Positions 39,613 through 51,158 of a stretch of 64,000 nucleotides of DNA are shown piece by piece (position 1 is the first letter of the stretch; each line of letters begins with the position of its first letter). This DNA comes from an uncultured Desulfatiglans sp. Its GTDB lineage: Bacteria > Desulfobacterota > DSM-4660 > Desulfatiglandales > Desulfatiglandaceae. The notes beneath the pieces are model-generated. The model saw only the letters and a list, made by a program, of their open reading frames with translations, did not search any database and had not been told where the DNA came from. Location: contig LR026961.1 of NCBI GenBank assembly GCA_900498135.1, forward strand, positions 1,180,520 to 1,244,519, in the 5' to 3' direction. A program made the position numbers and the translations under genes.

Positions 39613-41169
39613 TCAGACCCGTCTTTCGCGCCCCTGCCAGAATTCGTCGCGGATCTTGCGCTTCAGAAGCTTACCCGTCGGGTTGCGCGGCAGATCGGAC
39701 CTGAACTCCACCGACTTGGGTTTCTTGTAACTGGCCAATTTCTGCTTGCACAAGTCGATGATCTCCTGCTCCGTGGCATGCATCCCTTCCTTCAGCACCA
39801 CCAGGGCCTTGACCGATTCCCCCCAGTAGTCGTCAGGAATCCCCACCACCGCCACCTCGAGCACCGCCTCGTGGCCGTAGATGACCTCCTCCACCTCCCG
39901 GGGGTAGATGTTTTTGCCCCCGCTGATAATCATGTCGTTTTTCCGGTCGACGATGAAGACATAACCCTCCGCGTCGCGCCGGCCGTAATCACCGGTGTAC
40001 AACCATCCATTGCGGATGGTCTTGGCGGTTTCTTCGGGCAGGTCCCAATAGCCGACCGTCATGGCCTCCGTCCGCACGATGATCTCGCCGACCTCGCCTA
40101 CCGGCACATCGTCTCCTTCATCATCGACGATCCGGACCTCGCAGTCGACGATCGCGCGGCCGGCTGATGCCAGGCGGGCCATCTGCTCCTCGCTGCCTTC
40201 GAGCACATGGTCCTCCGGTCTCAGCGCGGTCGTGGCCGGACCCGTTTCAGTCTGACCATAAAGCTGCACAAAGCCGCACTTAAAGCGCTGCATGGCCCGC
40301 TTCAACAGTTCGACCGGCATGGGCGAGGCGGCATAGGGCATCAGCCTGAAATGCCCCAGATCGTAAGTCTCGATGTCCTTGGCCTGGAGCATGGCGTTGA
40401 TCATGGTCGGGACGAACTGCGCGGTGGTGATGCGCTCCGCAGCCAGGATCTCCAGGACCTCCCGGGGATCGAAGCTGCCTTCCTTCTTGATCACGATCGT
40501 GTTGGACATCAACACATGCCGGATCTGATCCTCGAAGGAGACGTGATAGAACGGAGACAGAAGCAGGACCCGATCATCGTAGGTCAACCCGAGTTCAATA
40601 GCACAACTCATAATATTCGTCAAATTGTGATGGTGGGTCCGCATCGCCCCCTTCGGACGGCCCGTCGTTCCGGATGTGAGGAAGATGCTGAAGATATCGT
40701 CTCGGCTGATCGGAACACCCGGTTCATCGGCAGAACCTTTTCCGAGGAAATCCTCGTAGACACTGAATCCGGAACCCCTGTCATTCAGAACCACGGGGTG
40801 CTCCATAAAGGGCGCCCTGGGCCCGATGCCCTGGATGAACGGAATGAACTCCGGATCAAAAAAGACGAACCGGGGCTTGATGTAATCCAAAATATAGCTC
40901 AGTTCCCCCTCTTTCAGAAGGTTGTTGATCGGAACGAGGATACCGCCGGACTTTGCACAGGCGAAATAGAGTTCGATGAACTCGGGGCAGTTGTGCAGAA
41001 GCAGGGCGACCCGGTCGCCTTTCTGGAGCCCTGTCCGCAGCAGACTGTCCGTCAAACGGTTGACCCGCCGATTCAATTCCCCGTAGGTCAACCGGCGCCC
41101 GCCGAACACCAGGGCGTCCTTATTCGGGAACTTTGCAGCGCTCCTCCTCAGAATATCTCCTAGGCCCAT
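39613..41169 (-). CDS. AMP-forming acyl/aryl-CoA ligase (module A)
   Basis: A 518-residue ANL-superfamily enzyme that activates a carboxylic acid with ATP and CoA. Motifs: the P-loop SGTTGRPKG (166-174), YGQTETGP, YTGDYGRRD with the ribose-binding Asp, and the C-terminal NPTGKLLKRKIR with the catalytic Lys. It is closer to the FadD/long-chain-type group than to PaaK. The substrate cannot be read from sequence; context suggests an aromatic or heteroaromatic acid brought in by the adjacent TRAP system. GGAGGGG precedes the ATG. Confidence 0.92.
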   Translation of the reverse strand: MGLGDILRRSAAKFPNKDALVFGGRRLTYGELNRRVNRLTDSLLRTGLQKGDRVALLLHNCPEFIELYFACAKSGGILVPINNLLKEGELSYILDYIKPRFVFFDPEFIPFIQGIGPRAPFMEHPVVLNDRGSGFSVYEDFLGKGSADEPGVPISRDDIFSIFLTSGTTGRPKGAMRTHHHNLTNIMSCAIELGLTYDDRVLLLSPFYHVSFEDQIRHVLMSNTIVIKKEGSFDPREVLEILAAERITTAQFVPTMINAMLQAKDIETYDLGHFRLMPYAASPMPVELLKRAMQRFKCGFVQLYGQTETGPATTALRPEDHVLEGSEEQMARLASAGRAIVDCEVRIVDDEGDDVPVGEVGEIIVRTEAMTVGYWDLPEETAKTIRNGWLYTGDYGRRDAEGYVFIVDRKNDMIISGGKNIYPREVEEVIYGHEAVLEVAVVGIPDDYWGESVKALVVLKEGMHATEQEIIDLCKQKLASYKKPKSVEFRSDLPRNPTGKLLKRKIRDEFWQGRERRV

Positions 41170-41282: not shown

Positions 41283-41774
41283 TTACACTCCGTATTTGAT
41301 CTTGTTCCACATGTCCTTGTCCTTCTCCGTCCAACCCACCCCGAACTTCCGGTCATAGTAGGACCCCAATCTCTCGAACCATCGCCACCAGGGGCTTTGC
41401 CCCTTCTCTCTCGCCTCGAGGACATCGTTCAGGAAGATCTCGAGGTTCGCCATTTCTTCCTTCGGCAGATACGAGGCGGCACCGCCGCGCCAAGAGCGGG
41501 CGGCATCCTCCGGAGTCAATGCATGCGCAGTCAGCATGACCGGCACCACCTCCCGCTTGACGGCGATGTCAAGAAGGGCATACCCGTCCACGCCCATGAT
41601 ATCGAGGATAGCGATATCGAAATATTCGGTTTCAAGTCTTTTTCTCGCCTCTTCGAAACTCGTTGCGGTCACGAGATGACACATCGTCAGCAATTCTGAC
41701 AATGCATCCAAGACATCTGGCTCATCGTCAACCAGAAGGATTTTCTTGCCTTCAAGAAGATTTTTCTGCTTCAT
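41283..41774 (-). CDS. Receiver-domain protein between TRAP and ligase genes
   Basis: About 163 residues. The receiver (ILLVDDEPD, phospho-acceptor Asp in AILDIMGVDGY, Thr in MLTAHAL, Lys in YLPKEE) is followed by about 45 Trp/Lys/Asp-rich residues with no recognisable DNA-binding domain. I use ATG 41774; the frame is open to 41816 and neither start has a clear Shine-Dalgarno. A receiver without output domain inside a catabolic operon is unusual; no kinase is nearby. Confidence 0.8.
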   Translation of the reverse strand: MKQKNLLEGKKILLVDDEPDVLDALSELLTMCHLVTATSFEEARKRLETEYFDIAILDIMGVDGYALLDIAVKREVVPVMLTAHALTPEDAARSWRGGAASYLPKEEMANLEIFLNDVLEAREKGQSPWWRWFERLGSYYDRKFGVGWTEKDKDMWNKIKYGV

Positions 41775-41899
41775 GGGGATACCGTTGGCTTCCTTCTCCG
41801 TAAATGGAACAATCATTCAATCGAATGGGGCAATCGAGGACCATCCTGAAATGATCTGCCGGTAGGACCCAGTTTCCCCACCGACCATGAGGACTTGTT

Positions 41900-42021: not shown

Positions 42022-43305
42022 TCAATCATAGAGAACATGCGGCAGCCACAATGACAACTGTGGAATGTACGCGACGAGGAACAAGATCACCACATACACG
42101 ATCAGGGGCGGCATGATGGACCGGCAGATGAACGTGAACTTTTCCTTCATCACAGCGACCGCAGTGTACAGGAGCAAACCGAGGGGCGGCGTAATGTAAC
42201 CGATCCCGAACCCGAGGCAGAGAATGATGCCGAAGTGCACCGGATCCATGCCGTAGGCCTTGGAAAGCGGCAACATCACCGGCGTCAGGATCGCCAGGGC
42301 CCCGATAATGTCCAGAAACGTGCCGATGACGAGTACCAGAACGACCGTCATGAACACGAAGATCCAGGGCTGCGAAATATATCGCATCGTCGTGTCGACC
42401 AGCACGTTCGGAAGATCTTGCAGCACGATGAACTCTCCGAGGGTCATGGCCCCGGCTATGATAATGACCAGCGTGCCGCTCAGAATCCCGGACTGGACTG
42501 CCAGACGCCAGATCTCCTTGAAGGAGACCTGCCGGTACAGGAGCGTTTCGATCAGGATCGCATAGGCTGCCGCCACGACGGACGCCTCGGTCACCGTAAA
42601 GACACCGGTGTAGATCCCGACATAAAGGATCAGGGGCAGCAACAGCGACCACCCCGCTCTCCAGAAAGTCCGCCCCATGTGCCTCAACCCCATGAACTGC
42701 GTCGCAGACTGCCTCTTCAACCGGCCGTAGCCGTAGGCGTACAGCGAAAGCAACACCATGATGAGCAAACCCGGAAGGATGCCCGCCACGAACACTCGGT
42801 TGACGGAGGTGCCGGCGATCATGGCGAAGATGATCATGGGAACGCTTGGAGGGATGATGATGCCCAGGATCGAGGAAGCCGTGAGAATACCGACCGAAAA
42901 CCGCCTTTCATAACGGTTTTCGTCCAGGGCCGGCATAATGATCCCGCCGATGGTGACAAGGGTGGAGATACTCGACCCTGAAATCGCACCGAACAGCCCG
43001 CACGAGTTGACCGCGGCGATCGGCAGCCCCCCGCGCAACGGGGAAACGATCGCAAAAACGAGGTCCACCAGCCGCTTCGCACTCTCCCCGCGCACCATGA
43101 TATTGCCAAGGAAGATGAAGAAGGGGATGGCGATCAGCGAGTAATTATCGAGCTTCTTGATCAGGATCTGCCCGATGACCGCCATCGGCACCGGCGCAAA
43201 GAGCATGAAACAGACGAACCCCGACAGGAAAAGGGACAGAAAGACGGGGATCCGCATGAAGATCAGAATGAGCAATAACCCAATGGCAAAAGCGAGCATC
43301 AGCAT
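42022..43305 (-). CDS. dctM: TRAP transporter large permease DctM (module A)
   Basis: A 427-residue, about 12-helix membrane protein, the ion-coupled permease of a tripartite ATP-independent periplasmic transporter. Family blocks seen: the IPFFIFLGNIMVRG start, AVNSCGLFGAISGSSISTLVTIGGIIMPAL, IIPPSVPMI and FGIGYITPPLGLLLY. It works with the adjacent DctQ and DctP. It starts 3 nt after the dctQ stop. The substrate is probably an organic acid related to the neighbouring CoA ligase. Confidence 0.94.
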   Translation of the reverse strand: MLMLAFAIGLLLILIFMRIPVFLSLFLSGFVCFMLFAPVPMAVIGQILIKKLDNYSLIAIPFFIFLGNIMVRGESAKRLVDLVFAIVSPLRGGLPIAAVNSCGLFGAISGSSISTLVTIGGIIMPALDENRYERRFSVGILTASSILGIIIPPSVPMIIFAMIAGTSVNRVFVAGILPGLLIMVLLSLYAYGYGRLKRQSATQFMGLRHMGRTFWRAGWSLLLPLILYVGIYTGVFTVTEASVVAAAYAILIETLLYRQVSFKEIWRLAVQSGILSGTLVIIIAGAMTLGEFIVLQDLPNVLVDTTMRYISQPWIFVFMTVVLVLVIGTFLDIIGALAILTPVMLPLSKAYGMDPVHFGIILCLGFGIGYITPPLGLLLYTAVAVMKEKFTFICRSIMPPLIVYVVILFLVAYIPQLSLWLPHVLYD

Positions 43306-43308
43306 CGT

Positions 43309-43800
43309 CTAGCCCTCTTGTTTCCCGGTAGACCGGTCCGCAAAGATTTCACGAAAGCTCAACAGCGTTCTGACAGCGAAAAGCACCGCCGCAAAAGGCA
43401 AAACGCCGAAGAGGATCCATAGCGGAAGGCGCAGGGTAGGGCTGACATTGCTGAAGGCGTATTCCATCTGAACCACGGATATCCCCGCCCAGAAAAAGAT
43501 GACGCAGGCCGCCAGCCGGACGATATTCAACCAGACGGCAAAGAATTTCCCGGTGCGGGGGAAGACATCGACGATGAAATCGACCTTGAGCTCCGAGTCG
43601 TGTTTGATGCCGGCGCTCGATCCGAGGTATACGAGAAGGATCATCAGATAGGTGGACAATTCGGCCGGCCAGGAAAGGGATGCATGAAAGAGGTAACGAA
43701 GGATTACATTGACAACAAGTATGACCAACGAGACGAGCATACACATGCCGATGCCGTACTCTTCGAGCACAGTCAGGAATTTATCGATCCGCCGTGTCAC
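43309..43800 (-). CDS. dctQ: TRAP transporter small permease DctQ (module A)
   Basis: A 163-residue, four-helix membrane protein of the DctQ family, with the conserved SWPAELSTYLMILLVYLGSS block near helix 2. I chose GTG 43800 because GAGGAGG is at the right distance. It lies between dctP and dctM. Confidence 0.9.
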   Translation of the reverse strand: MTRRIDKFLTVLEEYGIGMCMLVSLVILVVNVILRYLFHASLSWPAELSTYLMILLVYLGSSAGIKHDSELKVDFIVDVFPRTGKFFAVWLNIVRLAACVIFFWAGISVVQMEYAFSNVSPTLRLPLWILFGVLPFAAVLFAVRTLLSFREIFADRSTGKQEG

Positions 43801-43934
43801 TGAGCACCTCCTCTTTGCTGTAAAAACGGCCGCTACGCCAAAAAAATTCGGTCCCCCTCTACACTCCTGCAGGAGCCCCTATTCCGAGGAAGAGAGCTCC
43901 CCCCCCCGTCTTCGAGAGCAGCTCCGGCCGGGGG

Positions 43935-43982
43935 AAAGGGGATCGGCGGCGCGCAGCCTCCCCCCGGCGGCCGATCCCCTTT
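43935..43982 (-). other. Stem-loop between dctP and dctQ
   Basis: A perfect 12-bp stem AAAGGGGATCGG / CCGATCCCCTTT, with more partial GC pairing inside, overlaps the dctP stop codon. No U-run follows. In an operon where the binding protein is needed in excess, such a hairpin can protect the 5' message or cause partial termination. That role is inference. Confidence 0.6.
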
Positions 43983-45006
43983 ATTCCATCGGAGGGCTCT
44001 TCTCCACATCCTTCAAAAATTCCACCACCTTATCGAACCACTCGGCGCCGATCCGCTCGCGCCACTTCGGCCAGACCTTCTCCTTCACTGCCTGCCTGAA
44101 CTTGGCATCCTCCTCCGGTTTCAGCGGTGTAAAGGTAACCCCTTTCTCCTTCATCGGAGCGATCACCCTGCATTCGTCGTAGAGCTGGGCCACACGCGCC
44201 TGGGCTGACGCCTCACGGATGACCTGCACCACCAGGGTCTTCAGATCCTCCGGCAGATTGTCGTACCATTTTTTGTTCAAGACGATGTACCAAGTCCCGA
44301 CGACATGGTCGGTGTGCAGGATGTACTTGGTCAGGTCGTCCACCTTGAGAAAGTGGATCGCCGTTTTCGATTGTTCGATCCCGTCGATCACCTTCTGATT
44401 CAGCGCCGGATAAACCTCGGGCCACGGCATGGTGTCGGCGTTCACCCCCCAGGCCTTCCACCAGTCGAGATTGATCTGCGATTCCGTACAGCGGAACTTC
44501 AGCTTTCCAACTTCTTCAAACGTGTTGATCGGTTTGGTGCTTGCGATGACATAACGGCCGAACCACATCTGGTCGACAAACATGAGACCGGTGCGCTTTT
44601 CCCCATATTGGAAGAGTTCGTTCCGCAGTTCGTCATTCGCCAGGAACTTGGTCCATTTTTCATAGGAATCCAGGACATAGGGGCAGTAACCGATACCGAA
44701 CTCGGGGGCCATATCGGGCAGGATATTTCCATTGGTGTAGGCTGCCTCGATCATGCCCATCTGGCATTTCTTGGTGATCTCGATCGTATTGCCCAGTTGG
44801 AAGCTGTGGAAATACTGAACCTCCATCCGGCCCTTCGAGCGTTTTTCGATCTCGTCCTTGATCCAAACCCCGGCCCTGGCATGCGATTCGATGAGCGGCG
44901 TCATGTGGGCAAGGCGCATCTTGTATTCAGCGGCCGTTGCGCTGGCAGCGATAAACCCGATACTTATGACGACGATCCCCAGCAGGGTCCAACACCCTTT
45001 TCTCAT
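43981..45006 (-). CDS. dctP: TRAP transporter substrate-binding protein DctP (module A)
   Basis: A 341-residue periplasmic solute receptor. A signal peptide (RKGCWTLLGIV, ending ASATAAE) precedes the DctP fold. KLRFRCTESQINLDWWKAWGVNADTMPWPEVYPALNQKVIDGIEQS includes the conserved Arg that clamps substrate carboxylates and the family's P-x-E-x-Y-x-A-L-x-x-x-x-I-D-G motif. GGGAGG precedes the ATG. Confidence 0.93.
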   Translation of the reverse strand: MRKGCWTLLGIVVISIGFIAASATAAEYKMRLAHMTPLIESHARAGVWIKDEIEKRSKGRMEVQYFHSFQLGNTIEITKKCQMGMIEAAYTNGNILPDMAPEFGIGYCPYVLDSYEKWTKFLANDELRNELFQYGEKRTGLMFVDQMWFGRYVIASTKPINTFEEVGKLKFRCTESQINLDWWKAWGVNADTMPWPEVYPALNQKVIDGIEQSKTAIHFLKVDDLTKYILHTDHVVGTWYIVLNKKWYDNLPEDLKTLVVQVIREASAQARVAQLYDECRVIAPMKEKGVTFTPLKPEEDAKFRQAVKEKVWPKWRERIGAEWFDKVVEFLKDVEKSPPME

Positions 45007-45355: not shown

Positions 45356-46978
45356 CTATTCCCGGCCGCCCGAATCTCCCAGGATGTCCGCGGGGGAATC
45401 CCAGTCCCGCATGGCGTGCATCCAGGGCGCGCGGTCCACGAACAGGTCATGGGCGAGGGGCACCGGCGGGTGTGAACGCCATTTCGGGTCGAACTCGTTT
45501 TTGACCTTCAGCAGGAACTCGTGATAATTGGGGCCGTATTTCGGGCCCGTCAGGTAAAGCGGCTGGTGAGGGCCCAGAAGCGAGGTGTAGAACCGGTTCT
45601 TGATGTTCATCTTGGAAGTGTCGACGTAGAACTGGTCCACCGGGTCCGTATCGTCGTCCTGGTCCCAGTAGATCAGGAACTCCGAGTAGCCCTGGTGCCC
45701 AAGCTCGAAGCTCTGGAACCAGCCCGGGTCGCCGTAGTCCGGCATCAAGGGCGGCGTGTACTTCTTCTTCAGCTCCGCGTAGCTCGGACCGTGGTCGGGC
45801 GCCTGGGTGAGGGACTCGATGACATAGTCGACCGAGACATACCCGCCGCACATGAGCCACATGCCGGCCGAGTCGGCGTTCTTGATCCACGACTCGTCCG
45901 AGGGCTTGGTCCGCCGGGCCACCCCGCCGACCTCCGTCATGATGTCCATCAGCACCCGTTCGTCGTATTCCATCTGCTCTTCGGAGGTGAAACCGATCAG
46001 GAGCACGCGCACGATGAAAAAGTTCGCGATGCTCTCCTCGTTCTCCTTGCCCCAGATGTCCCAGAACTCCTCCTTGCATTCGGCCTTGGCGATGGCCCGC
46101 CAGAAAAGCGGCACCTTCGTGACCGCCCCCGCGATCTCGGCATGCCCGATGTTTCGCATGGCCGTCACCTGGGCCTCCTTGGAGGGAACGGTGAAGTTGA
46201 TCCACTTGACGCGCTTCTCGGGAAGAGCCAGGGCGGTGTTGGGGGAGATTCCGGTCGGCTCGAGCCGCTCGGGCTGGAACGGCAGGGTCTTGATCGCCAT
46301 CCGCGTCACGATCCCGAGGCAGCCCCGCAGACCCGTGTAGCCCCTCAGAAGCCCGCGCAGGTCCGGGCCCGGACCCTCGCCCCAGAAGGGATCGTCCCCG
46401 GTGGCCAGGGAGCCCATCCGCAGGATTTCGCCGTCCGGCATCACCACCTCGGTCCCGAGGATCCGGCGGTGCGGCAGTCCGATCCGGTGGCTGAGCGGCG
46501 ACCACCCGTCCCCGATCAGGTTCGCGATGGCCGAGGCCTGCGCCCCGCCCCCACCGATCACCACGTAGGCCCCGTGGCGCATGCACTCCTCCTGGATGGG
46601 GGAATAGACCATCCCCGGGCCCACCTCGACGTAGAAATGCTTTTCGTCCAGCACGAAGTCATTCATGCGCTTGAGGTCGATCAGGAGCGCATCTTCGACA
46701 TGCGGGTGGGAGCGCGGTCCATAGAAGCCGGTGCTGTAAGGGACATAAGGGATGTCGTGGCGGTAGCAGATCCGCACGATGCGCTGCACCTCTTCGGTCG
46801 TCCGCGGCATGATGATACAACCCGGAATCTTGGTCATGACCCGCTCATAGCCAAGACCGTTTTCGTATCCGCCCGGTCCACTCCGGTAGCTTTCGCAGAT
46901 CACCGGATCGTCCGAGATATATTCAGGCCCGACGACGGCTTTTAGCGCCTGGTAGATTTCCTTCGTAATGGCTGGCAT
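45356..46978 (-). CDS. FAD-binding (PCMH/VAO-type) oxidoreductase, 540 residues
   Basis: A flavoprotein of the FAD_binding_4 superfamily. The FAD domain covers about 40-230 (CIIMPRTTEEVQRIVRICY, IPYVPYSTGFYG, VGPGMVYSPIQEECMRHGAYVV). A cap domain follows. The C-terminus lacks the usual FDPNNIMNPG of lactate/glycolate oxidases and reads FDPKWRSHPP instead. It is paralogous to the 485-residue flavoprotein encoded at 48505-49962, with a CCG iron-sulfur protein between them. The family includes D-lactate dehydrogenases, glycolate oxidase GlcD and 4-cresol/vanillyl-alcohol enzymes; the substrate here is unknown. GGAGG precedes the ATG. Confidence 0.85.
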   Translation of the reverse strand: MPAITKEIYQALKAVVGPEYISDDPVICESYRSGPGGYENGLGYERVMTKIPGCIIMPRTTEEVQRIVRICYRHDIPYVPYSTGFYGPRSHPHVEDALLIDLKRMNDFVLDEKHFYVEVGPGMVYSPIQEECMRHGAYVVIGGGGAQASAIANLIGDGWSPLSHRIGLPHRRILGTEVVMPDGEILRMGSLATGDDPFWGEGPGPDLRGLLRGYTGLRGCLGIVTRMAIKTLPFQPERLEPTGISPNTALALPEKRVKWINFTVPSKEAQVTAMRNIGHAEIAGAVTKVPLFWRAIAKAECKEEFWDIWGKENEESIANFFIVRVLLIGFTSEEQMEYDERVLMDIMTEVGGVARRTKPSDESWIKNADSAGMWLMCGGYVSVDYVIESLTQAPDHGPSYAELKKKYTPPLMPDYGDPGWFQSFELGHQGYSEFLIYWDQDDDTDPVDQFYVDTSKMNIKNRFYTSLLGPHQPLYLTGPKYGPNYHEFLLKVKNEFDPKWRSHPPVPLAHDLFVDRAPWMHAMRDWDSPADILGDSGGRE

Positions 46979-47162: not shown

Positions 47163-48491
47163 TTATCCCTCGATGGATGCCAAGATCACCTCCGAGATAT
47201 CCATGACCTGCACCGGCAGCCCGTCTTCTTTCACCACCCGGCTGAAGTTGTTCTTGCACCACGGGCAGGTGGAGACCAGGGTCTCGGCGCCGACGTATTT
47301 CACCTCTTCCAGCCGTTCGGCCGCCGCCCAGCGGGCGAAGTCCGGAAAGGCCTCGCCGGTTCCGCGCCCGGCGCCGCAGCAGAAGGCGTTTTCGCGCATC
47401 CGGGGCATCTCGACCAGCTGCACCCCGGGGATCGCCTGCAGGATCTCCCGCGGTTGAGCGTAGACGCCGTTCGTCCCGCGGCGGCGCTTGAGGCGCGGTT
47501 CGACGCATCCCATCCAACCGCGCTTGCCCTCGTAGGGGGTCCAGGGCTCGCTCAGCCGGCTCAGGCTGCAGGAGTCGTGATAGCTCATGCGCGTCTCGAA
47601 GGGCTTTTCCAGGGTCAAAGCCCCGTCCTTGATCTTCTCGTCCACGTACTCCACCAGATGGAGGACCTCGAAACCCAGGTCCGCGGTGGCAATCCCCAGG
47701 AGCTTCGGGTAATCCACCTTCCACATGCGATAACCCTCGGCGCAGCTCGTCAGGAGGATCTTGGCCCCGGTCCTGCGGACCGCCTCCACGTTGCGCTCCG
47801 CAAGCGCCTTCGCTTCATCGTAGAGCCCGACCGAAAAGAGTGTGTTGCCGCAGCACCACTCGTCCGGCAGCAGCATGAAGTCCGTCCCCGCCGCCTTCAG
47901 GATCCGCGCCGTCGCCCGGGCGATCTCCTTGTTGGTGTACGAGGCGCTGCACCCGACGAAGTAGAGCACATCCGCCTTTTCGGCCGGAGTCACCCCGGAG
48001 GCCGCCACCCAGTCCCGGCGCTGTGCGTGCGCCGCGTTGAAGAAGTTGTGGCTCTCGGCGATGTTGGCGGCGATCTTCTTGTGGGCCGGCATCGGCCCCA
48101 CCCCGTCTTTGACCGCCTTCACCCGCAGGGCCTCCAGGCTCAGCTCGATCTCGAGGTCGAGGTTGCGCTTGCAGCCTACATCGCAGGCCCCGCAAAGCGT
48201 GCACGCATACATGATCTCGAGCGCCTTCTCGTTCCAGTCGAGCACGCCTTCGGCCATGGCGTGGCCGATGCGCATCTTGCCGTAGGCGCCGTAGGCATCG
48301 AACTCGAATTTCGTCGCGCTCGGGCAGCGCGTCATGAACCGCGCACCCGGCATATAGGTATGGTCCACCCACGTGCATCCCTTGCACTTGATGCAGCGGC
48401 TCATATCGTAGACGAAGTTCTGGATATCGGTGACGTCCAGACCGAACTCCGCCCTCGGCTTGTAGTATCTGACAGCTGATTCCTTGCTCAT
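47163..48491 (-). CDS. (Fe-S)-binding protein with two CCG domains (GlcF/HdrD-like)
   Basis: A 442-residue electron-transfer protein. Two [4Fe-4S] ferredoxin sites lie near the N-terminus: CIKCKGC (33-39) with Cys56, and CTLCGACDVGC (97-107). Two CCG-type cysteine-rich domains follow, with EWCCGN and later AFCCGAGRG plus STCPWCKNN. This is the GlcF/LutA/HdrD architecture that takes electrons from a flavoprotein partner to a quinone, heterodisulfide or other acceptor. It sits between the two flavoprotein genes, with short spacing to the upstream one, so the three may form one complex. Confidence 0.9.
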   Translation of the reverse strand: MSKESAVRYYKPRAEFGLDVTDIQNFVYDMSRCIKCKGCTWVDHTYMPGARFMTRCPSATKFEFDAYGAYGKMRIGHAMAEGVLDWNEKALEIMYACTLCGACDVGCKRNLDLEIELSLEALRVKAVKDGVGPMPAHKKIAANIAESHNFFNAAHAQRRDWVAASGVTPAEKADVLYFVGCSASYTNKEIARATARILKAAGTDFMLLPDEWCCGNTLFSVGLYDEAKALAERNVEAVRRTGAKILLTSCAEGYRMWKVDYPKLLGIATADLGFEVLHLVEYVDEKIKDGALTLEKPFETRMSYHDSCSLSRLSEPWTPYEGKRGWMGCVEPRLKRRRGTNGVYAQPREILQAIPGVQLVEMPRMRENAFCCGAGRGTGEAFPDFARWAAAERLEEVKYVGAETLVSTCPWCKNNFSRVVKEDGLPVQVMDISEVILASIEG

Positions 48492-48504: not shown

Positions 48505-49962
48505 TTAGAAGCACAGGTTCCCGGGATTCATGATGTTGTTCGGGTCGAACACCTTCTTCAGCCGCTTGAGGTTCGCGGCATAGGAGGCGGCCCGCTCGTA
48601 GACGATCGGCGCGAGTTCGCCATACGGTCTCGTGAAGACAGCGCCTTCCTTCAGGAAGGTCTCGGCCGCCTCGAGATAAAGGCCTCGCACCGCCGCCTTG
48701 GCCGAGTCGTCCGACGGATCGTAGAAGAAGGTGAACTCCGGCCGGCAAGCCCGGTTGTGCTCGATCGGCTGGATGTACATCCCGATCTCCTGCGCGGGAT
48801 AGCCGTGCCGGGTCGCGATCTCCCGGATCCGGTCCACAAACTGGTTCGCCTGGAGCGGGCGCGTGTGGAAGAACAGGCTCTGCGAGGCCCCCTTGACCCG
48901 GTTGCGCCAGTGCGGCACATCCGCCGGCCAGGGGTTTCTCAGGATCGACAGGACCCGGTGGCGCAGGCCCGGGAACCCGGGAAGGTTTTCGCCGAGATGC
49001 ATTTCTGTGAACTCGTTCTTGATCACTTCAGCCAGGAAGTTCATCTCATAGGCGATTTTTTCCTCCGGCCGGCGCAGGAGTCCACTCACGACCAGGATCA
49101 GGGTCCAGGGAGGCAGCGTCGCCTTCATGCGCTCGTAGTCCGACGGCCCGTTCTCCGCCAGGATCGCCGCCAGATCGACCTGGTTCAGCAGCAGCACCTC
49201 CTGACCGATGCGCCTCGGCAGGATGCGGTGCAGGAACTCCATGGCGTAGTTCAGGTCTTTGACGGGGGCGAACAGCACCTTGTCTTTGCGGGGGATCGAT
49301 TCCATCTTGAGGTTCGTCCAGGTCACGACCCCCATCGTCCCCTGCGCGCACTGAAAAAAGCGGTAAAAATCGAGGCCCGGGCCGGAGGGGTTCGCCCCCT
49401 TCGACGGGCTGTCCGGGTAGCCGTTCACGCTCGCCGAGCCCATGCGGAAGATCTCGCCCGTAGGCCAGACGACCTCCATCGCCTCGAGCGGCTCGCCGTA
49501 GTCATAGACCTGATTCGTGGGCTCTTCGCGCTCCATGAAATCGGTCAAGACTGAGCGCTCCGCCGGCGGGGTCAGGGGCATGATCACCCGGTAGCCCGCC
49601 GCCTTGAGTTCCCGCGTCAGCTTGTCCCAGCTCACGCCGGCCTCGAAACGCACCCGCCGGTTCTCCGGATCGATCTCCAGGATGCCGTCCATCCGGCTCA
49701 GGTCCATCAGCACGCCGCCTTCCTTCGGGATCGTCGCACCGAAGAAATGCACTTTCGAACTGCAGGGCACCACAGGCGTCATCGTGTCGTTGCAGACCTT
49801 GATAACCTCCGATACCTCGCTCGAATTTTTTGGTTTCACCACACAGCTCGGTGCAGCCGCCCGCGTGTAGCTGTAATCGCTGGCGTATTCCTGCAGCCTC
49901 GCCGGGTCATCCAAGAAATTTTCCGCTCCGACCACTTCGGACAATCTTTCTTTTACGTCCAC
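48505..49962 (-). CDS. FAD-binding oxidoreductase (GlcD-like), 485 residues
   Basis: A flavoprotein of the FAD_binding_4/FAD-oxidase C family. CVVKPKNSSEVSEVIKVCN and VPCSSKVHFFGATIP mark the FAD domain, and it ends KKVFDPNNIMNPGNLCF, the classic C-terminal motif that its 540-residue paralogue has lost. The GTG at 49962 is preceded by AGGGAGGGAG. It is the first gene of module A, transcribed from the promoter/operator at 50105-50133. Function probably depends on the downstream CCG protein as electron acceptor. Confidence 0.88.
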   Translation of the reverse strand: MDVKERLSEVVGAENFLDDPARLQEYASDYSYTRAAAPSCVVKPKNSSEVSEVIKVCNDTMTPVVPCSSKVHFFGATIPKEGGVLMDLSRMDGILEIDPENRRVRFEAGVSWDKLTRELKAAGYRVIMPLTPPAERSVLTDFMEREEPTNQVYDYGEPLEAMEVVWPTGEIFRMGSASVNGYPDSPSKGANPSGPGLDFYRFFQCAQGTMGVVTWTNLKMESIPRKDKVLFAPVKDLNYAMEFLHRILPRRIGQEVLLLNQVDLAAILAENGPSDYERMKATLPPWTLILVVSGLLRRPEEKIAYEMNFLAEVIKNEFTEMHLGENLPGFPGLRHRVLSILRNPWPADVPHWRNRVKGASQSLFFHTRPLQANQFVDRIREIATRHGYPAQEIGMYIQPIEHNRACRPEFTFFYDPSDDSAKAAVRGLYLEAAETFLKEGAVFTRPYGELAPIVYERAASYAANLKRLKKVFDPNNIMNPGNLCF

Positions 49963-50104
49963 GGCTCCCTCCCTATTCTGGTGATCAGCTCATTTCCATT
50001 TCATCCTGTGCCGCAGGGCCTCCTTCATACCGTTTCGATCGAGGAGAACACCATCCGGTACGAAATCCACAAAATCAAAACACGAATTATTTGCGTTTTA
50101 ATTG

Positions 50105-50133
50105 TTAATAGTTTAACTATTAATCCGTGTCAA
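50105..50133 (-). promoter_or_regulatory. Module A promoter with a 19-bp MarR-type operator
   Basis: Minus strand: -35 TTGACA (50133-50128), exact 17-nt spacer, -10 TATTAA (50110-50105). The perfect palindrome TTAATAGTT-T-AACTATTAA (50105-50123, plus strand) covers the -10 and most of the spacer, so a bound dimer would block RNA polymerase. MarR proteins commonly bind AT-rich palindromes of this size. The divergent marR gene carries a similar sequence in its own promoter. Confidence 0.75.
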
Positions 50134-50636
50134 GAGTTTTCCGGGGTCTCATCTTTATTTTTTCGGAGGCGATTTTCTTCCGCGGCCCGGCCATCAAACC
50201 GGAAATGAGGATTTTTGGCCAATATCAAGGAAATCAAGCGTTTGCGCGGAGGCGACCTGCAGGTCGCCGCACAAGCAAACGTGCAGATTGACGCCGAGAT
50301 TGGCCAAAAAGACCATTTCCGGATGGATCTAGATAAACCATTTTAAATCCATAAGTTCACCAGAACTGCAGACCCTCTGCCCGGGAAACGAACAGATGGA
50401 AACCGTCATGAGGCGGGTCGGGATCGACCCCGCAGGGCGGGCATGAAACCGGGGAGTCAAGGCTGTGGGCGGCAAAAGACCTTTACGAACAGTCCAGAGG
50501 GCGGGTCGAAAATGATCGAACTCTCAAACAGCGTGTACGGGACGCAAAACGTACCGAGGCCATTGGAAGGAGCCGGCTGTTTCTGCGAAGAGCACCCTTA
50601 CACCGTGGGATGAGGCAAAAAAAACACATTTCATTG
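50134..50636. other. marR / module A intergenic region outside the mapped sites
   Basis: About 500 bp with no gene. It contains repeat copy R2 (listed separately) and GC-rich remnants around 50400-50460 (CCCCGCAGGGCGGGC) that vaguely recall the second repeat family. Nothing else was recognised. Confidence 0.4.
50215..50307 (-). repeat. 93-bp palindromic repeat, copy R2
   Basis: The reverse complement of 1-93 with a single substitution. The ends are TTGGCCAAT and ATTGGCCAA and the centre is GCGACCTGCAGGTCGC. It lies in the 740-bp gap between the divergent module A promoter and marR. Confidence 0.9.
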
Positions 50637-50666
50637 TTGACAATTTATCTATTTACAGCTTAACAA
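50637..50666 (+). promoter_or_regulatory. marR promoter with degenerate operator
   Basis: -35 TTGACA (50637-50642), about 17-18 nt, -10 near TTAACA/TAACAA (50660-50666). The stretch 50637-50655 matches the 19-bp module A operator at 14 of 19 positions, sharing TTTA and CTATT, and three more matching bases lie just upstream. In addition CATTGTT (50632-50638) and AACAATG (50662-50668) form an inverted repeat around the promoter. Autoregulation by MarR is the simplest reading. Confidence 0.6.
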
Positions 50667-50699
50667 TGCTGTCAAGATTAAAAGGAAGGCGTAATAGAC

Positions 50700-51158
50700 A
50701 TGGTAGACAACGATTACCAGAACGACATGAGCATCGACGAAAAGGTGATGATGGCGATCGTCCGGCTAGCCGAGCGCTTCAAGAAGGAGGCCTCCGCCCT
50801 TTTCAAGCACCACGGGCTCACCTTTCCTCAATACAATGTGCTACGGGTTCTGGATGCCTCGCGGAACGGACAAAACACGATGCGGGACGTCAACCGCATC
50901 ATGCTCGTCTCGGGGGCCAACATGACCGGCATCGCCAAGCGCCTCGAGAAAGCGGGATTCATCACCCGACAAAACGACCCGGACGACGATCGTCTCAAAC
51001 GCCTCCAGATCACCCCCAAAGGCCGCCAAGTATTGCAGGATATCGCAGCCGACAAGGAGCGGAACGTGAAACGGTACCTCGCATCCTATTCGGAAGAAGA
51101 AAAACAACTTCTGCTCAAGACGCTCTCCAGCATCCTGACGCACAAGAAGAAACGCTGA
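50700..51158 (+). CDS. MarR-family transcriptional regulator
   Basis: A 152-residue winged-helix protein. KKEASALFKHHGLTFPQYNVLRVL leads into the recognition region MLVSGANMTGIAKRLEKAGFI, and the wing DPDDDRLKRLQITPKG has the conserved DxRxxxxxLT-like pattern. MarR proteins release DNA on binding small aromatic compounds or CoA thioesters. AAGGAAGG lies 10 nt before the ATG. It is divergent from module A and convergent with hyuBA. A role like that of regulators in anaerobic aromatic or indoleacetate catabolism is inferred from context. Confidence 0.92.
   Translation: MVDNDYQNDMSIDEKVMMAIVRLAERFKKEASALFKHHGLTFPQYNVLRVLDASRNGQNTMRDVNRIMLVSGANMTGIAKRLEKAGFITRQNDPDDDRLKRLQITPKGRQVLQDIAADKERNVKRYLASYSEEEKQLLLKTLSSILTHKKKR

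What the first reader, a model, noticed from the sequence alone, without database searches (positions are those of the whole stretch)
50105..50655. A paired MarR operator: perfect 19-bp palindrome over the module A promoter and a degenerate copy in the marR promoter
The palindrome TTAATAGTTTAACTATTAA sits exactly over the spacer and -10 of a TTGACA-17-TATTAA promoter driving the catabolic operon. A 14/19 match overlaps the -35 and spacer of the divergent marR promoter. Two related sites placed on both promoters around a MarR gene make a specific model: repression of module A and of marR, with release by a pathway intermediate.
Basis: partly seen in the sequence, partly recalled or inferred. 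Interest (0 to 1): 0.65.

Follow-up and report, generated by a model that had tools for sequence, protein, structure and literature searches.

The report
Tandem MarR operator at catabolic promoter
Two divergent promoters around a MarR-type repressor gene carry matching operator sites; relatives show that the real element is a row of short palindromes spaced exactly 15 base pairs apart, so this looks like an ordinary repressor with an unusually regular operator that probably keeps an anaerobic breakdown pathway switched off until its substrate arrives.

Summary
A 14/19 copy (20/25 in longer register) lies over the TTGACA of the marR promoter. Comparison supports the MarR-operator reading but corrects the element. 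In orthologous promoters the conserved unit is a 14-bp palindrome GTTAANNNNTTAAC, repeated in tandem with a strict 15-bp centre-to-centre spacing (e.g. Desulfonema magnum: GTTAATATATTAATC GTTAATACATTAACT ATTAACGCATTAAC). The marR promoter holds two 8/10 sites, again 15 bp apart. The array is found upstream of the flavoprotein gene in 13 of 13 genomes with an orthologous MarR and in 0 of 13 searched genomes without one. Most likely the MarR binds as adjacent dimers and represses both promoters, released by a pathway metabolite (probably an acyl/aryl-CoA; untested). New variant of a known kind.

The parts
50104..50117 (-). Main operator site GTTAANNNNTTAAC (10/10), in the spacer and -10 of the flavoprotein promoter
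   Evidence: Only 10/10 site in the 64-kb window; same register as orthologous arrays
50089..50132 (-). Three-site array at 15-bp spacing: 50089-50102 (6/10), 50104-50117 (10/10), 50119-50132 (5/10); TTAA half-sites flank the central site on both sides
   Evidence: Joint-top triple score (21/30) of the 64-kb window; p=0.005 against shuffles
50105..50123 (.).
   Evidence: dyad at this centre not conserved in relatives
50105..50133 (-). Predicted promoter TTGACA-17-TATTAA of the flavoprotein operon
   Evidence: Sequence; same TTGACA-17-TATTAA under an array in L043, L045, L049
50636..50664 (+). marR-promoter operator: GTTGACAATTTATC (50636-50649, 8/10) and ATTTACAGCTTAAC (50651-50664, 8/10), 15 bp apart, over the TTGACA (50637-50642)
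   Evidence: Pair p=0.003; joint-top pair score and the only other locus with a high triple score in 64 kb
50700..51158 (+). MarR-family regulator, 152 aa
   Evidence: Pfam MarR_2 3.5e-13; orthologues 50-98% identical
48505..49962 (-). FAD-linked oxidase 1 (flav1), first gene of the regulated operon
   Evidence: Pfam FAD_binding_4, FAD-oxidase_C
47163..48491 (-). 4Fe-4S/CCG iron-sulphur protein
   Evidence: Pfam CCG, Fer4_8
45356..46978 (-). FAD-linked oxidase 2 (flav2)
   Evidence: Pfam FAD_binding_4; conserved order flav1-CCG-flav2
42022..45006 (-). TRAP transporter (DctP 43981-45006; small and large membrane subunits), probably same operon
   Evidence: DctP Pfam/NCBIfam; DctQ/DctM named by position and by homologous order in D. 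magnum
39613..41169 (-). Acyl-CoA ligase, end of the presumed operon
   Evidence: Pfam AMP-binding, NCBIfam PRK06187 above cut-off

Best explanation
The MarR encoded at 50700-51158 is a dedicated local repressor. It binds, as adjacent dimers, a tandem operator of GTTAANNNNTTAAC-type sites spaced 15 bp. At the flavoprotein promoter the array covers the -35 edge, spacer and -10 (50089-50132); at its own promoter a weaker two-site version covers the -35 and spacer (50636-50664). Both promoters are held off until a metabolite of the pathway, most likely an acyl- or aryl-CoA made by the cluster's CoA ligase, releases the protein. Shown here: the sites, their 15-bp phasing, their position on the promoters, and their co-occurrence with this MarR lineage. 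Inferred: binding by this MarR, repression, self-repression, and effector release.
For: Conserved 15-bp array upstream of flav1 in 13/13 loci from genomes with the MarR and 0/13 searched genomes without it (Fisher 2e-7). Spacing test: at 15 bp mean z 5.9 and 12/13 loci significant; no other spacing from 9 to 30 exceeds z 3.0. L048 and L050, close flav1 relatives without the MarR, lack the array. In D. magnum and L052 the marR is not beside the flav1 promoter, yet the array is still there. An array is also upstream of marR in G089 (L014), on a short stretch without flav1, and between an acyl-CoA ligase and a mutase gene 4.4 kb from marR in G108. In the 64-kb window the top-scoring arrays are exactly the two promoters. 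TTGACA-17-TATTAA under the array in four lineages. Precedent: two Rv2887 MarR dimers cover 15 bp each on nearly opposite DNA faces (PMC5526998); BadR and CouR sites overlap -35 boxes and respond to CoA thioesters (PMC9795900; PMC4737184).
Against: No binding or expression data. The genomes are related, so the 13/13 versus 0/13 contrast is not 26 independent events, and most array-negative loci are also the more diverged flav1 genes. In the window only the central site is perfect; the outer sites are 5/10 and 6/10. Arrays are not found directly upstream of marR in several relatives (D. magnum, G106), so self-repression is not general. A second, unlinked flav1 copy in G117 (L063) has no array. 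The -10 hexamers are weak. The ligand is unknown.
Confidence: 0.8

Rival explanations
1. Single-site model: one MarR dimer binds the 19-bp palindrome, and the neighbouring half-sites in this genome are vestigial.
For: Only one 10/10 site in the window; the 19-mer is a perfect palindrome and rare by chance; characterised MarR operators can be single sites (HucR, CouR).
Against: The 19-mer dyad is off-register by 3.5 bp from the conserved dyad and is not conserved (0.40 of pairs against 0.66 at the site centre); the marR promoter has two sites with 15-bp phasing and no 19-mer palindrome.
Confidence: 0.2
2. A different, unlinked transcription factor binds the array; the MarR is only carried along with the cluster.
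For: No binding data; in G101 and D. magnum no array stands directly in front of marR.
Against: Array and MarR are present or absent together across genomes; the array stands upstream of marR in G089 on a stretch without flav1; the only other regulator-like gene in the operon, 41283-41816, matches a receiver domain only; TAAN4TTA has the geometry of the MarR-type BadR site CAAN4TTG.
Confidence: 0.1
3. The MarR activates rather than represses the flavoprotein operon.
For: Some MarR proteins are activators (PMC4737184).
Against: The arrays sit on the spacer/-10 or just downstream of a good TTGACA in nearly all lineages, not upstream of the -35.
Confidence: 0.07
4. Chance: AT-rich promoter DNA with palindromic look and no regulator.
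For: The scanner's strict promoter rule finds nothing; AT-rich DNA is rich in TTAA.
Against: Dinucleotide-preserving shuffles, spacing specificity and the MarR-negative control loci speak against it.
Confidence: 0.02

Closest known systems
BadR (MarR family; Aromatoleum sp. CIB, Rhodopseudomonas palustris)
   Same: Local MarR repressor of an anaerobic ring-compound pathway; operator CAAN4TTG has the same half-site geometry as TAAN4TTA here; sites overlap divergent promoters; released by a CoA thioester (PMC9795900)
   Different: Reported as single 10-bp sites per promoter, not a 15-bp tandem array; pathway genes differ; no sequence comparison with BadR itself was made here
CouR (MarR family, Rhodococcus jostii RHA1)
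   Same: MarR repressor of an aromatic pathway, inverted repeat over -35 boxes, divergent gene, CoA-thioester effector (PMC4737184)
   Different: One inverted repeat cATTGA-N5-TCAATg per promoter region; no tandem phasing reported in the passages read
Rv2887-DNA complex (MarR family, M. tuberculosis)
   Same: Two dimers side by side, 15 bp of DNA each, on nearly opposite faces (PMC5526998): the same 15-bp step as the array here
   Different: GC-rich site read mainly by DNA shape; two dimers in a crystal, no conserved tandem palindromes
HucR (MarR family, Deinococcus radiodurans)
   Same: Divergent regulator/enzyme promoters controlled by one MarR released by the pathway substrate (PMC5487221)
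   Different: Single shared site in the intergenic region

Membership tests
MarR family of transcription factors | Winged helix-turn-helix MarR domain | tested here: met
   Pfam MarR_2 3.5e-13 and MarR 1.1e-10, both above cut-off; PDB MarR structures at 5e-12
MarR family of transcription factors | Palindromic operator-like site at target and own promoter | tested here: met
   Sites on both promoters in register; binding itself not tested
MarR family of transcription factors | Homodimer that binds the site and is released by a ligand | not testable with these tools
   Needs purified protein
HpaR (homoprotocatechuate regulator, TIGR02337) | Score above the curated equivalog cut-off | tested here: not met
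   52 bits against a cut-off of 121
BadR-type repressor | Operator of the CAAN4TTG geometry over the -35 | tested here: inconclusive
   Core here is TAAN4TTA; relatives vary between TTAA and TCAA/TTGA (e.g. TTCAACATGTTGAC upstream of marR in L021). Geometry matches, first base usually differs: works like BadR; membership not claimed
BadR-type repressor | Controls bad-ali cyclohexanecarboxylate genes | tested here: not met
   Cluster is two FAD oxidases, CCG iron-sulphur protein, TRAP transporter and CoA ligase
15-bp tandem MarR operator (proposed here) | At least three sites at exactly 15 bp, conserved across lineages | tested here: met
   12/13 loci, mean z 5.9 at 15 bp only; strong triple in D. 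magnum and L049 (28/30); in the window one full site plus two weak ones

The most novel reading that the evidence does not exclude
A lineage of MarR repressors that assembles three or more dimers in a row on DNA, one every 15 bp on alternating faces, giving a cooperative, switch-like derepression of a so far undescribed flavoprotein/iron-sulphur/CoA-ligase pathway of anaerobes.
Probability: 0.35. Interest if true: 0.6.

Novelty: new variant of a known kind. Interest (0 to 1): 0.45.

Why it matters
It gives a testable regulator-operator pair for an uncharacterised anaerobic catabolic cluster found in sulphate reducers and relatives, and an exact DNA spacing rule (15 bp) that suggests how several MarR dimers pack on one promoter, something seen in a crystal of Rv2887 but, as far as the held literature shows, not described as a conserved tandem operator. 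The operator also offers a way to find the inducer, and so the pathway's substrate.

Tried and rejected
Regulon elsewhere in the genome: the pattern GTTAANNNNTTAACNNTTAA with up to 2 mismatches gives only this locus without mismatches, the rest at the level of the reversed-pattern control; the four-half-site TYAAN4TTRA pattern gave no further credible site in G000. Response regulator 41283-41816 as the binder: receiver domain only. Rfam: nothing in 49900-50800. Promoter scanner: no hit under its rule. Simple pair-lag profile: peaks at 8, 15, 23 and 30 reflect the 7.5-bp half-site rhythm; the triple test was needed to single out 15. NCBIfam equivalogs: none above cut-off, so no effector can be named. 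Literature searches for tandem MarR operators returned nothing closer than Rv2887; the MepR operator paper is not held.

Full report
Observation. The sequence TTAATAGTTTAACTATTAA is present at 50105-50123. It is the longest perfect palindrome of the marR-flavoprotein intergenic region, reached by 1 of 1000 local dinucleotide shuffles, and is unique in the 4.8-Mb genome at up to 3 mismatches. On the minus strand it lies over TTGACA(50128-50133)-17-TATTAA(50105-50110). The 14/19 copy TTGACAATTTATCTATTTA is at 50637-50655 (1 of 500 shuffles); taken as 25 bases in the same register it is 20/25 (0 of 500). The marR side reads TTGACA-17-TTAACA, a weak -10. The promoter tool, which demands a T at the end of the -10, calls neither.

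Genes. The 152-aa protein at 50700-51158 is a MarR; no NCBIfam equivalog reaches its cut-off, the nearest being HpaR at 52 bits against 121. Divergently lie two FAD-linked oxidases with a CCG/4Fe-4S protein between them, then a TRAP transporter, a receiver-domain protein and an acyl-CoA ligase. The two flavoproteins resemble D-lactate dehydrogenase, p-cresol methylhydroxylase and vanillyl-alcohol/eugenol oxidases at similar weak levels, so the substrate cannot be named. In Desulfonema magnum the same block continues with an acyl-CoA dehydrogenase, a 4-hydroxybenzoyl-CoA-reductase-like molybdoenzyme, a CoA ligase, TRAP genes and then marR, which points to an aromatic or similar acid; this is inference.

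Relatives. MarR orthologues 50-98% identical and flav1 orthologues were fetched. Divergent marR-flav1 pairs recur in G001, G012, G030, G076, G100, G110 and G117. Apart from the congener G001, their promoters do not keep the 19-mer. They keep a 14-bp palindrome GTTAANNNNTTAAC repeated in tandem, separated by one base, so that centres are 15 bp apart: L049 GTTAATGTATTAACC GTTAATACATTAACG ATTAACGTATTAAT; D. magnum (L045) GTTAATATATTAATC GTTAATACATTAACT ATTAACGCATTAAC; L043 GTTAAAATATTAATA GTCAATACGTTAACT ATTAGCGTTTAAAC. In the window the unit in register is GTTAATAGTTTAAC at 50104-50117 (10/10), with weaker sites at 50089-50102 and 50119-50132, so that four TTAA half-sites stand in a row. Its dyad is matched by 0.40 of base pairs in relatives against 0.66 at the site centre.

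Statistics. Scoring three sites at spacing d against dinucleotide shuffles, 12 of 13 loci from MarR-bearing genomes are significant at d = 15 with mean z 5.9; no other spacing from 9 to 30 exceeds 7 loci or z 3.0, and those that rise most (22, 23, 30) are multiples of the 7.5-bp half-site rhythm. A set of 13 array-free loci is flat at every spacing. Each of the 13 MarR-bearing loci has an array at p <= 0.015; none of 25 other flav1 loci has one. Of these 25, 13 genomes were searched for the MarR and none had it at E <= 1e-12. The two closest of them, L048 and L050 (75% and 72% identical flav1), lack both MarR and array, also in the wider 13-kb loci. Caveats: the genomes are related; for L017, L053 and L141 the array lies in an intergenic region shared with marR, and in L017 the best-scoring triple is on the marR side although a flav1-side array is also there; a second, unlinked flav1 copy in G117 (L063) has no array.

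marR side. In the window GTTGACAATTTATC (50636-50649) and ATTTACAGCTTAAC (50651-50664) score 8/10 each and are 15 bp apart (p = 0.003). Over the whole 64 kb, every triple scoring 17 or more lies at one of the two promoters. This is a check of its own, since the consensus was read off flav1 promoters of relatives. Arrays upstream of marR are also significant in G089 and G012, but none is evident directly upstream of marR in D. magnum or G106. The congener G001 keeps both arrays (98% and 96% identical) while parts of the spacer between them fall to about 70%.

Mechanism. In window, D. magnum, L043 and L049 the array lies under TTGACA-17-TATTAA; in most other flav1 promoters a good TTGACA is kept and the array overlaps or follows the -10. 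That placement fits steric repression. A 15-bp step is about 1.4 helical turns, so neighbouring dimers would sit on nearly opposite faces; the Rv2887 crystal shows two MarR dimers covering 15 bp each in that way (PMC5526998). The half-site geometry TAAN4TTA matches that of BadR (CAAN4TTG), whose effector is a CoA thioester (PMC9795900), and CouR is released by p-coumaroyl-CoA (PMC4737184). Binding, repression and effector are not shown here.

Regulon. No other array was found in the genome, so the regulator looks local. In G108 a second array lies between an acyl-CoA ligase and a methylmalonyl-CoA-mutase-like gene, 4.4 kb from marR, which suggests a small regulon in some relatives.

Verdict. 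It is a new variant of a known kind of regulation, of moderate interest.

Noticed in passing
50199-50322: A 124-bp near-perfect hairpin (predicted RNA fold -64.9 kcal/mol, z -8.5) between the two promoters has about 40 full-length copies at 98-100% identity in this genome, some in tandem; it is also abundant in the congener G001 but absent from this locus there (probably a recent insertion), and diverged copies occur in G005, G006 and G046. No Rfam match. Looks like a high-copy mobile palindromic repeat.
   Followed up: partly
L169 2849-2892 (G108): A second 15-bp array, between an acyl-CoA ligase and a methylmalonyl-CoA-mutase-like gene followed by a B12-binding protein, near marR.
   Followed up: partly
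L168 (Desulfonema magnum): One continuous cluster: array, flav1, CCG protein, flav2, acyl-CoA dehydrogenase, 4-hydroxybenzoyl-CoA-reductase-like enzyme, CoA ligase, TRAP transporter, marR; substrate unknown.
   Followed up: partly
window 41283-41816: A stand-alone receiver-domain protein lies between the TRAP genes and the CoA ligase; no output domain was matched.
   Followed up: no
L145 (D. magnum 3210416): A broken second copy of the marR gene with stops, about 830 kb from the intact one.
   Followed up: no
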